Of a stretch of DNA of 64,000 nt, positions 27,101 to 33,100 are shown one piece after another. Position 1 is the stretch's first letter. The number at the start of each line of letters is the position of its first letter. Below the pieces are notes generated by a model. That model saw only the letters and a program-made list of their open reading frames with translations. It was not told where the DNA came from and made no database searches. The position numbers and the translations under genes were made by a program. The DNA lies in contig NC_087077.1 of assembly GCF_026151205.1 (NCBI RefSeq), positions 1,922,001 through 1,986,000 of the forward strand, read 5' to 3'. Origin of the DNA: Bolinopsis microptera. Taxonomy: Eukaryota; Ctenophora; Tentaculata; Lobata; Bolinopsidae.

Positions 27101-30100
27101 TCTCGCCAAGATCGGGTCGCATTTCGTAAAATGATTCCAACGTCATCTCAAAGTTATCAAGCTTCTTCAGGTACTCGAAGTACGTGTAGGGGTTGAACTG
27201 AGGATAAAATGTCATTAGTCGGTGATAAGTCAGTAATATTCTGATTAATATTGAATACTGATGATATTGAATAGCCTTTGAAACAAGTCTGATCATGTAC
27301 AAATAATTTAATTGTTGGATCGGAGACCAGTGTAAAGTTTGTTAAGTTTTCTTTATTAAGCGAAGGTTTATTTAAAGGAAACTTACATTGGATCTGGATA
27401 GTAAGTCGTTGAACAGTTCAGGTCTCAGGTTTGGATACTGCGCCTTCAAAGTGTGGATCATGATGGCGTAACCAGTGATGTACACCTGAAGCATTCGTTA
27501 ATAATAATCAGAGATGACGATTACAAATGACGACGGGCGTAGACTTTCACTTTTTGAGCACAGAGTGTCTTAACAATTTCAACTTTTTGTTCCGAAATCT
27601 AACCAGACTAACCTGATTGAGATACTGAAAGGGGTATTTGTGCTTGGGCTTAGGTATCTGAGCTTTTGGTGGTTCAGTACTGGTAGGTTTAGCAGGCGGT
27701 GGAGGACCAGGGTAGTTCTGATCACCAGGTTTCTGAGCCAGGGGATCAGCGGTAGAACCGTACGCACTGAAATAGGAGGAACTGGACGAGCCAAGCTGAG
27801 AGATAGTGGCACTGAGTTGGCTCGATGCAGTAGAGGGAAGACTGGATCCAGTGCTCCCAGATTTGGGGATTGGAGTACTCTTGATAGCGGAAGAGGAGGC
27901 AGACCCGGGGGTGGAGGCGTTCGAGGGTTTTACTGCCATCATGGTTTCAGCCGTGGTTGAGTCCTTGTTGTTTCCCAGCATGTAATGGGGCACTAGAACT
28001 GTTGTTTTTGCGTTGCTTGTTTGTGTCGTCAGCTGAAATTTGAACCGTTATTGAGAAAAGATCTCCCGATGTCCAATTATTTCTCATAAGGTTGAGTTTG
28101 AAGTGAATTAGATTATGATGGTAGAAGTAGAAAATATTTCAATTGATTTATTTCTCACCTTCAGATAAGGACTTTGGTTTTGGTCGTTTCATGGGTAAAC
28201 ATGGTATGGGTTTGCGCAACGATATGGGAGAAAACTTGTTAGACTTGTTATCAGAATTTGACCTCTTTGCCTCCAACACTGGTTTTTATCATCCTGCTCG
28301 ACATACGACCACCTATACTGGCTGGAGGAAGGACTGGAGTGCCGGGCGAAATAGTAAAAAGACGATCCCGGTCTATTCTCAGATCGATTTCATCCTGTGT
28401 CGAAGTAGGTCGAAGCCAATGCTACAAGATTCTAGATCTTATGCAGGCACCTTGACATACTCTGATCACAGATTTGTTGTCACTAGAGTAGACTTTAAGG
28501 ACATCTGTCTTTGCTATAAACGCCACTCCAAGTCATCCTTAAAGTTCAACACCTCTGAACTCACCTCGAACCCCACCATTCAGGTGAAATATCGTCAATC
28601 CTTAGATGATAACTTAAGTAACACTGTTTCTGCTCTGGATCCAAATTCAGACTTGAATGGCTTACTTGAGTCCATAAAGGATGCTGCAAAATCGTCAATT
28701 GGTGTCATCAGACACAGGAAACGTAATCGCAGCGACGATGATGAGGTGAAAAACTTATCTAGCCAGCGTTACTTGTTGAGACAGCAGCTTAATGATAACC
28801 AGTCTTTAGACAGAACCTCACTTAGATCATCTATTAACTGCCTCACCAATCAGATCAAGCAGAGACTTTCTAACATACGATCAGCTGCTGCTGATGCTAT
28901 CTGTAATACCATCAGTTCAACAACAGATAGTAAGAAAATGTTTGAAGCTGTTCGAACCCTGAACTTACCTAAAAGTAAAGCCCCTTCTAGTATTGGTGTT
29001 CATGATGAGCAAGGGTGCAATATTGCAACAGACACTGGTAAAGCTGCCGTAGTTGCTAAGTACCTTGAGCAACAACTTACTCGTGATGAAGCACCTTTAG
29101 AACCTTTTGTAGGACCTCTTCGCCCACTAGTTAAGCCATTCACTAGTGAAGAAATCGGATCAGCTGCTAGAAGTCTCAAAAATGGTCGAGCTAACGGCCC
29201 AGATGGGATTCCTAATGAGCTTCTCAAGTATTCTACTGGATCAGTACACAGACGTTTTGCAGACATTATCAATAGAAGTTTCGAGACCAATTCCTACCTT
29301 GACCCCATTGGACAGGCAAACATTACCCCCTTACAGAAGCCAAATAAGCCCATTGGTCCAGTGAAGAATCTACGACCCCTCACTCTCTCAAATGCTGTTA
29401 GAAAGATTCTTTCAATGGCAACCTTGAAGAGAATTGAGAATAAAGTCAATGCCTTCACTGGTCCATGGCAATGTGCTTACAAGCAGGGTAGATCATGTGC
29501 TGACATTGTATGGTGCCAGCGTGTGATGTTATCAGTTGTCCAGAGGAAGAGGTGGGAATACCATCGTATGGGGATCGACATGTCTAGTGCCTTTGACACT
29601 ATACGACGATCTACCATCCTCGATCTTCTTGTTGAGTGTGGCTGTGATGATGACGAAGTCCGTTTGGTAAGACTTTTGCTTTCCAACACCAAGCTCAAAG
29701 TCAACATCAACGGTACACTGTCTGCTGAATTCCAGAGTTTTCTCGGTGCATTCCAAGGTGACTGTCTGTCTGGATGCTTGTTCACACTTGTCTTAGCGGG
29801 TGCCTTGCGTGACCTCCGTAACAGGCTTGAAACTGCAACGAATAGGCCTAACCCACCTATCACCGATATTGGTCTTCCACTTGACAGTGAGTATGCTGAT
29901 GATATCGACTTCAATGATGAAGATGAAGACAATTTGAGGGAGCTGTTGCCTATTGCAACAGAAGTCCTTAAAGATTGGAATCTCTTCGTTAACGAAGACA
30001 AAACTGATTTCACTCATGTGTACTTAGCTGAAAAGGGAGCTAAAGACGATCAGGGTAAGCCAATTGCAGGGAACGAGCTCTGGAGAAAGAGTATCACGCT

Positions 30101-33100
30101 TGGCTCCATGCTTTGTAGCAAGGAGGACATCTCTAGAAGGATATGTCTGGGATATGCCGCGTTTAACAAATACAAGAAAGCTTGGAACCATAAGATCCCT
30201 CTGAGCAAGAGGCTTCTGTTGTATGAGGCTCTGGTAGTATCCGTTTTAATGTACAATTCATCTTGCTGGGCTGCCCCTAAATCAGTATTGGAAAAACTAG
30301 ATATTGCTCACAGACGTCATCTGCGATCAATTTTGAATTACAAGTACCCTCACATCATCTCCAACAAGAACTTGTATAAACGCTGCAATAGCGAACCATT
30401 GTCAGCTAAAGTGGCTCGTAGTCGGTGGAGGATGCTCGGACATGTACTGCGTGGGCCTACAAATGGCCCAGCCTATTCGTCGCTTGTTTTTGCTGTCAAC
30501 ACCTTACAGCTTCAAGGGCGGCGTGGAAGACCGCAGTCAAACCTTTTCTCACTGATTCTACACGACCTTAGTGTCCGAAATTTATCGTTAAATAATTTAT
30601 GTGATTTGAACTATTTAACGTTAATTGCTCAGAATAGAGTTAAATGGAGAAGTATGCAAATTGCATGACTTTTGTTTGAGAAAGATTAGGGGACAGAAAT
30701 GTTTACTTTGTTTACTATCTGTTTCTTAGAGCTTTTGTTTATATATATATATATATATATTTCTCACCTGCAACCGAGGACTGGTAGTTTTCAGCATTGA
30801 AGTTTTCTCCTTGTACCCACTGCCTGGGTTGGAGCCAGGATATTTAGCTGGCACAGTGCCACTCGACAGCACTTTCTCTTCTGTTTGTTTCAGCTCTCCT
30901 CGTGCTGGTGTCTCAATGTGCATCATCTGTTCGTTGAGGAGGGCTTGCTCGTTCCGCGGTATCATGTCAGGGTTCCGCAGTGCTGCCAAGGTGCCACCAA
31001 GGTCATTACCCACCGCCATTTTCTGTTCACGCTGAGCCATCGTTTGCTGCTGAATCAAAAGCTGAAAGTTGAAAATGTTAAGGACCTTATGAGAAACATT
31101 TCTAATACAGACAATTACCAAATAGCTTCCTATGAGCACTGCATCTAAATGTAAATTAATTCAGGTAAATAACCATAATTTCAAATTGAAAGTCGTTATA
31201 ATACTGTATCATGCACATACCGAGTTGATATTGTTGATCTGTTTGTGCTGCTGCTGAAGAATACTCCGATGAGAAATGTTGCTAGTAGTACTACTTGGTC
31301 TGCTGGGTGTGTTCTCCCCACTTTTAGTCTCGGACCTCTCCCTCCGCCTGTACTGCTCATGTCCCTGAGCTAGCAGGTACTCCTCTGGTCTCTTCGTGTT
31401 ATAATCGTTCCCGATGTAGTGTCCCAGACCATTCCTAGCTAGGATAGCATCTAGGTGGGACATACCGGCGCTGTCCTTCATATCAGGGCGGACAAGAACG
31501 TCTGTGATGGGCTGCTCGATTACGACAGAGGGCTTTGGACGAGGCTTCGTCAGCTCTGTGGGTATTTTAACAGGGTGTGAGGTAGCGTGGGAGGTAGGGT
31601 GCGCAGTTAGAGGTAGTTTGGGTGGACCTATGAGTTGAGGTTTAGGTTGGCTAGGCTCCCTGGGTTTGACTGTTGCTGCTACAGGTACAGGTTCAGGTAC
31701 AGACATGGGTAAAGGTATGGTTACGGCTTTGGCGGCAACCAATTCGGGTTTGATTGCTGGTTTAGGTGGAAGAGTTGGTAGCAATCTTGCAGCCTCAGCA
31801 GCTGCAGCGGCAGAAGCCATTTCCTCTACTCTCTTTTTAGCCGCCAACTTTTCTCTTTTGACTGCAAGTTCTTTTTCCAACTGCAGATTATCTTTCTCTA
31901 AACTCTCAATACTGAGCAGTATTTTGGACAAAGATTTCGTCCTGTCCTTGTATCCTTTAGCTGTCTCTTGGCAGACGGACGCCAGACTCTTGAAATCGTA
32001 ACCAGGTAATTGTGATACCACGTCCTGGTAAACTCTCTGCTTGATTCCAACCTCAGTCGAGTACTCCGTGTACCGCTCGTGGTTATCACGCCACGTCGAA
32101 ACTTCCCGCAACTGCAAGACAACAATTTAGATTGTTTCAACCAGACAATAACAAAGAAATTGGCATTGCATTTCAACAATAACAAAAAATGTAGCAAAAT
32201 CTAATGCATATGCTAAGCGGTCTGAAAAGTTAAAAAACAAGGCTTACCAGCGACGATTTGATAGCGGTCTGATAGTTTGTAACTTCAGAGGACAGCCGAT
32301 CGAGGCGCTTGTGTAGTATCTTAAACCCAGTCACCTGGTAGAGTAACTCCTTGCCGATACCTTGTGGGTCACGTGACTTGATGCCCAGCTGCGGGGGAAG
32401 GAGGGGTATGTGAGATATTGTGTAATATACGGACGGGGCTGAAATGTGTGGGAATTGTACACGTGCCCAGCTGACGTTAACACCCTGGCAATAAAATTAG
32501 GAGGGCTCGGCAAGTCTTAGAGGGTGGCCCAAGACACCAGTCATGCCTTCCTGACACCCACATACCTTTACTTACACACACAGGCCACAGCTATTACATG
32601 CTGGCCAGCTAGATACAGAATTATACTTCAACAACAGCTAGCAAACAGTACTTCAATACAAAAAAGCAGGGCTACAATAAAAGTCACGGCGGAACATCTG
32701 GTATTTGAACTATAAACTTATTATTAGAACAATCTATCAACTACAACATTAACAGTGATGATTGGCTAACCTCAGCTAGGCGGTTATCCAGCGCGGTGAC
32801 CACCTGCTCCTCCTCAGTGTGAACATTCCTGTCCAGGTGGTCCAACTGTTCCTCTAGTCTCTCCTTCAACACCCTACTCTGTTCCAGCTCAAGCTGGAGT
32901 GCTGCTTCACCGTACGAGGAGGAACATTGGGACATGTACTCGGACAGATGCGAGTTCAGCAGCTCTGAAAAGGTCATTTTGTTTGGGTAAATTCATAAAA
33001 ACCCTGCAGTAACGTATCATAACTCGGCAAGTATACAAATATTTTCAGGACCACTATAGTCTATACCTCAGCCGCAAAAAGATCAAAATTCCGGCAGAAT

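What the first reader, a model, noticed from the sequence alone, without database searches (positions are those of the whole stretch)
28149..30769. LINE insertion duplicated the DOT1L exon 13 splice donor
The 12-bp target duplication TATTTCTCACCT includes, on the DOT1L strand, the whole donor AG/GTGAGAAAT of exon 13. The element therefore cut at the exon-intron junction and rebuilt a working donor on one side while leaving a second donor copy 2.6 kb downstream. The ancestral intron would be about 126 bp. Target duplication has here protected an essential gene from a lethal insertion, and the spare donor could allow antisense LINE sequence to be spliced in.
Basis: partly seen in the sequence, partly recalled or inferred. 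Interest (0 to 1): 0.7.

Follow-up and report, generated by a model that had tools for sequence, protein, structure and literature searches.

The report
Young LINE landed on splice donor
In what appears to be a comb-jelly genome, a young jumping element has inserted across the start of an intron of the DOT1L gene, so that the splice signal now stands on both sides of it; the insertion is real and its mechanism ordinary, and whether the spare signal does anything needs RNA data.

Summary
TATTTCTCACCT occurs exactly at 28149-28160 and 30758-30769 and at no other place in the window. It bounds a 2,597-bp, 5'-truncated copy of a young LINE of about 3.2 kb with a (TA)n tail. At 21 of 40 loci examined I counted a target duplication, 7-14 bp, median 11. 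On the DOT1L strand the duplication is AG|GTGAGAAATA, donor included. The flanking exons stay in frame; the intron is 2,735 bp now, 126 bp without the insert. The DOT1 domain is found only here.

There was no RNA and no empty allele. 'Protected an essential gene' assumes a lethal alternative and a homozygous allele; the copy is very young and the published assembly was haplotig-purged. One of 21 duplications has a donor core, so no sign of targeting. The spare donor scores like the original, but the antisense LINE holds two higher-scoring donors, and all 14 candidate exons printed carry stops.

Overlooked: the far junction places acceptor AG and donor GT back to back, a possible recursive-splice site, untested.

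The parts
28149..28160 (.). left (intron-side) copy of the target duplication TATTTCTCACCT; on the minus strand a second donor, AAG|GTGAGAAATA, first intron base 28158
   Evidence: exact match; minus-strand reading
28161..30739 (+). 5'-truncated LINE body (about 600 bp of the 5' end missing); open frame 28131-30668 with RVT_1
30740..30757 (+). (TA)n tail of the LINE; the TA array as called runs 30740-30760 and overlaps the start of the duplication
30758..30769 (.). right (exon-side) copy of the duplication; on the minus strand the last two bases of the exon and first ten of the intron, AG|GTGAGAAATA
   Evidence: open frame and splice signals
27613..28032 (-). downstream exon ('exon 14'), 420 nt, opens in frame after TTTCAG|C
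28033..30767 (-). present intron, 2,735 bp; 126 bp without the insert
34935..36295 (-). two exon-bearing frames with the DOT1 domain that identify the host gene
   Evidence: Pfam PF08123 at 2.9e-20 and 9.4e-19; DOT1L chains of the PDB
28963..28984 (-). back-to-back acceptor/donor TTTACTTTTAG|GTAAGT inside the antisense LINE, first intron base 28968
   Evidence: score reached in 28 of 2000 simulated inserts

Best explanation
A recently active, RTE-like non-LTR retrotransposon inserted antisense into DOT1L by target-primed reverse transcription. Inferred steps: the gene-sense strand was nicked about 10 bases into the intron; the free ...GAAATA end primed on the (TA)n tail of the RNA; the other strand was cut at, or up to 2 bases inside, the exon; copying stopped about 600 bp short of the 5' end and joined through a CT microhomology. 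The staggered cut duplicated AG|GTGAGAAATA. The exon-side donor keeps all exon bases and intron bases +1 to +10, so I expect the exon still to splice from it to the old acceptor, the intron having grown from 126 to 2,735 bp. The distal donor copy is most likely little used, because nothing obvious upstream defines an exon that ends there. Insertion and duplication are shown by sequence; donor use is inferred.
For: Exact duplication. Near-identical relatives genome-wide. (TA)n tails and duplications of 7-14 bp counted at 21 of 40 loci. Endonuclease and RT domains in a full-length relative. CT microhomology. Frame kept across the junctions, stops in the intron, and a neighbouring intron of 159 bp by the coordinates beside the 126-bp ancestral one. 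Window copy differs from the column majority of 26 other copies at 7 sites, 6 of them private, in 2,580 bp. DOT1 domain found only at this locus.
Against: No RNA, read-level or population data. The exon model rests on open frames and splice consensus. 19 of 40 loci were not counted as having a duplication. The native acceptor scores poorly (-1.35, rank 40 of 199) with the generic weights, so those weights fit this animal badly.
Confidence: 0.85

Rival explanations
1. The insertion is harmful (exon skipping or cryptic LINE exons) and is carried only heterozygously at low frequency; nothing was 'protected'.
For: The copy is very young. The published assembly of the species I take this to be had haplotigs purged (PMC10232365, passage), so an empty allele would not be expected in it. 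In human NF1 an L1 195 nt downstream of an exon caused exon skipping plus a cryptic exon (PMC3219598, passages). The dog merle SINE, with a duplication at a splice acceptor, changes splicing (PMC7349775, passages).
Against: The exon-side donor is unchanged through intron base +10. The joined-flank search matched only the two flanks of this locus and no empty allele among 232 contigs, which is weak because of purging.
Confidence: 0.3
2. The spare donor is used to splice antisense LINE sequence into DOT1L as a new exon.
For: The distal site AAG|GTGAGAAAT has the same score as the original (6.76). Acceptor-like sites lie 159, 163 and 236 nt upstream of it.
Against: All 14 candidate exons printed meet a stop in phase 0, so a product would be truncated; this does not exclude use of the site. 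Higher-scoring donors lie at 28564 and 28968. The three near acceptors score 2.1-3.0, against 6.6 for the best in the insert, though the native acceptor scores lower still.
Confidence: 0.07
3. The element family prefers splice donors or short introns.
For: This copy lies on a donor; another copy (L011) lies about 40 bp upstream of a possible acceptor (TTTCAG) before an open frame.
Against: 1 of 21 counted duplications contains GTRAG on either strand, and the duplications vary widely in sequence.
Confidence: 0.03
4. The direct repeat is coincidence or the gene model is wrong, so no donor is involved.
For: No transcript evidence.
Against: 15 of 200,000 random segments reach 12 bp. In-frame joins on both sides and stops in the intron.
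Confidence: 0.03

Closest known systems
RTE-clade LINEs (e.g. SR3 of Schistosoma mansoni, PMC1291365, abstract and passages seen)
   Same: about 3.2 kb, endonuclease and RT, short target duplications (10-12 bp in SR3)
   Different: clade not tested by a tree here; (TA)n tail; different host
Canine merle SINE in PMEL (PMC7349775, passages seen)
   Same: antisense non-LTR insertion on an exon-intron boundary, 15-bp target duplication at the splice site
   Different: acceptor side, not donor; splicing effect described there, unknown here
Introners (PMC9860276, passages seen)
   Same: target duplications supply splice sites
   Different: introners create introns inside exons; here an existing intron was lengthened
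Retrotransposon insertions in human BTK (PMC4859970, table rows seen)
   Same: the listed duplications contain GAGTAA(GT), which I read as spanning a splice donor (my reading from recall of the protein, not checked against the gene)
   Different: sense orientation, listed as exon insertions that cause disease
Spliceosomal twin introns (PMC12403724, passages seen)
   Same: removal of an inner unit would regenerate the donor of an outer intron
   Different: [D1,2] stwintrons split G1 from U2; here the outer donor is intact and nothing is shown to be spliced so

Membership tests
non-LTR retrotransposon (LINE) | reverse transcriptase and APE-type endonuclease in the family | tested here: met
   RVT_1 2.3e-20 and Exo_endo_phos 9.1e-08 in the full-length relative L011; the window copy shows RVT_1 only
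non-LTR retrotransposon (LINE) | target-site duplication of variable length, 3' tail, variable 5' truncation | tested here: met
   duplication counted at 21 of 40 loci
RTE clade | length near 3.2 kb with a single endonuclease-RT frame | tested here: met
   about 3.19 kb and 1,034 aa; that this layout marks the clade is from recall and PMC1291365
RTE clade | position in an RT phylogeny | not tested
   no reference set of clades was gathered
introner | a new intron created in a former exon, in a family of intron-forming copies | tested here: not met
   the intron predates the insert by the gene model (126 bp, stops in frame); 1 of 21 duplications has a donor core
recursive splice site (ratchet point) | juxtaposed acceptor and donor AG|GT with a pyrimidine tract | tested here: inconclusive
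   28158 scores 4.13 and 28968 scores 7.07; reached by the best site of 245 and 28 of 2000 simulated inserts
recursive splice site (ratchet point) | stepwise splicing shown by RNA intermediates | not testable with these tools
   no RNA reads

The most novel reading that the evidence does not exclude
A target duplication across AG|GT leaves, on the far side of the element, the exon's AG directly followed by the donor GT: a ready-made zero-length exon. (Here that AG could equally come from the element, because of the CT microhomology; the letters are the same.) The insert plus one copy is a 2,609-nt GT...AG unit, and the antisense LINE adds a second site of this form (TTTTAG|GTAAGT at 28968). 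The enlarged intron could therefore be removed stepwise, 2,609 + 126 nt or 1,799 + 810 + 126 nt, with the donor regenerated each time. Donor-spanning insertions would then be a route by which recursive splice sites or nested introns arise.
Probability: 0.05. Interest if true: 0.6.

Novelty: new member of a known kind. Interest (0 to 1): 0.3.

Why it matters
It is a clean, young example of a retrotransposon whose target duplication straddles a splice donor of a chromatin gene found once in the assembly. It makes a general question testable with existing long-read RNA: when an insertion duplicates a donor, which copy does the spliceosome use, and do back-to-back AG|GT junctions made this way become recursive splice sites? 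As an event it is to be expected: from about 19,000 genes (M. leidyi, PMC11797021, passage) and an assumed 4-6 introns per gene, I estimate that roughly one insertion in 400-600 would place AG|GTGAG inside a 12-bp duplication before selection.

Tried and rejected
A preference of the family for donors was rejected on the duplications (1 of 21). The 21 were taken from 40 loci (30, 10). The 19 not counted were L013 (same flanks as L012), L015 and L031 (tandem-repeat flanks), and L021-L024, L027, L028, L036, L038, L041, L042, L051, L058, L060, L063, L064, L068 (none found, short or ambiguous). L020 and L029 were read by eye. On re-reading, L027 shows an 11-bp match (TAGTTATATTT) that the script missed; it has no donor core and is left out of the 21.

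An empty allele was sought with joined flanks and not found. The ten literature searches gave no direct report of a donor duplicated by a LINE's target duplication: searches returned 0 papers; one search returned 78 papers, 20 listed, none seen to describe it by title or start of abstract, though it brought the merle paper; one search matched 1,057, 6 listed. No paper held both 'recursive splicing' and 'target site duplication'. A broader search (380 papers, 10 listed) showed two papers on recursive or multi-step splicing, with 1 and 0 mentions of 'transposable element'; I opened neither.

Splice scoring used generic animal weights typed from recall. It ranks the native acceptor only 40th of 199, so its scores are a rough guide.

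Full report
What is there. The 12-mer TATTTCTCACCT lies at 28149-28160 and 30758-30769, exactly, and nowhere else exactly in the window. Random 2,597-bp segments of the window show a 12-bp flank match under the same slack in 15 of 200,000 draws. Between the two copies lie 2,579 bp of LINE body and 18 bp of (TA)n tail.

The element. A genome search with the insert gave 48 match rows, with 40 of 341 first-look candidates scored. Of these, 27 rows including the window itself cover nearly the whole query at 98-100% identity. A search with its 3' end gave 40 matches, 40 of 88 candidates scored. Copy numbers are therefore lower bounds. Many relatives extend about 600 bp further 5', to about 3.19 kb. 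One relative as it stands has a 1,034-aa frame with an APE-type endonuclease and a reverse transcriptase. Several copies keep a long open frame and others do not. The window copy is 5'-truncated within the endonuclease region and differs from the column majority of 26 other copies at 7 sites, 6 of them private, in 2,580 bp. It is therefore young. I call it RTE-like from its length and layout (compare SR3, PMC1291365, abstract and passages seen); no tree was made.

Target duplications. Among 40 loci examined, I counted 21 duplications, 7-14 bp, median 11; one more (L027) was recognised on re-reading and is not counted. The window's 12 bp is typical. One of the 21, the window's, contains a GTRAG donor core on either strand, so the family shows no sign of aiming at donors. 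Eight of the 21 begin with TA (my count from the list), as expected if the primer end pairs with the (TA)n tail. The 5' junction shares CT with the element at its truncation point. The window's true duplication is thus 8-12 bp.

The gene. The minus strand carries the DOT1 domain at 34935-36295 and matches DOT1L chains of the PDB. The domain is found only at this locus in the assembly (9 of 9 candidates scored, 2 matches, both here). The upstream exon ends ...TTGCAG|GTGAGAAATA at 30768/30767. The next exon begins after TTTCAG at 28032. The two join in phase 0 without a stop, whereas reading through the empty intron meets stops. Three consecutive exons, the first taken in part, join in one open frame. 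The intron is 2,735 bp and would be 126 bp without the insert; the distal donor also lies 126 bp from the acceptor. The neighbouring intron is 159 bp by the coordinates. I did not verify that the exon is number 13.

The host. The genome has 264.65 Mb in 232 contigs, 13 of them long; the 13 lengths are and sum to about 258 Mb. C1 is 26.2 Mb. Bolinopsis microptera is listed at 265 Mb, 13 chromosomes, largest 26.2 Mb, N50 20.8 Mb (PMC11797021, table passage). I take the window to be from this comb jelly. The listed scaffold number there is 346, not 232, and the share of bases in 13 scaffolds is given as 97.23% (PMC10232365, legend) against my 97.5%; I cannot explain this except by filtering of small contigs.

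How it came about (inferred from the usual mechanism). The gene-sense strand was nicked about ten bases into the intron and primed on the TA tail. The other strand was cut at, or up to two bases inside, the exon. Filling the stagger copied AG|GTGAGAAATA, or its inner 8-10 bases, to both sides. The exon thus kept its own donor, and a second, equally scoring donor now sits 2.6 kb downstream at the old distance from the acceptor.

That the duplication 'protected' the gene is not tested: the allele could be heterozygous and harmful. The assembly of this species was purged of haplotigs (PMC10232365, passage), so the failure to find an empty allele says little. With the nick at +10 the exon-side donor survives in any case. 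Exonisation from the spare donor is possible in principle, but with generic weights two donors inside the antisense LINE score higher (28564 and 28968), and the 14 candidate exons printed all meet a stop in the reading phase.

What was overlooked. The far junction reads AAG|GTGAGA: acceptor and donor back to back. Insert plus one copy is itself a 2,609-nt GT...AG unit. A stronger site of the same form, TTTACTTTTAG|GTAAGT, lies in the antisense LINE at 28968. The scores of the two sites are reached by the best site of 245 and 28 of 2000 simulated inserts. Two other minus-strand sites in the window, at 50924 and 59733, score higher still, so such motifs are not rare. Stepwise removal of the intron is therefore conceivable but unproven.

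Place among known things. Target duplications at splice sites are known: the dog merle SINE at an acceptor (PMC7349775, passages) and introners that take a splice site from their duplication (PMC9860276, passages). An L1 near a donor in NF1 disturbed splicing (PMC3219598, passages). The present case is a new instance of ordinary LINE insertion at an unusual spot.

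Noticed in passing
window 28968 (minus strand): The antisense LINE carries TTTACTTTTAG|GTAAGT, a back-to-back acceptor/donor motif that other antisense copies of the family may share.
   Followed up: partly
window 13045-17113 (-): Another non-LTR element: open frames with endonuclease and RT domains.
   Followed up: no
window 19627-21087 (-): A further RT element in pieces; the piece 19627-20622 matches RVT_1 and DUF6451.
   Followed up: no
window 36073-36214: A run of 71 AG dinucleotides directly beside a DOT1-domain exon.
   Followed up: no
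window 35159-35303: A 20-bp tandem repeat, about 7 copies, between DOT1-bearing stretches, in an open frame.
   Followed up: no
L012 and L013; L019 and L042: Two LINE copies 8.6 kb apart on C8 (L012, L013) have the same printed junction flanks, and L042 near the end of C8 shares the 3' flank of L019: local duplications or assembly artefacts.
   Followed up: no
L011 around 4096-4145: A full-length copy sits about 40 bp upstream of a possible acceptor (TTTCAG) before an open frame of 419 aa.
   Followed up: no
whole genome: TATTTCTCACCT occurs 65 times against 31 for the reversed pattern, as would fit its complement being a common donor sequence.
   Followed up: no
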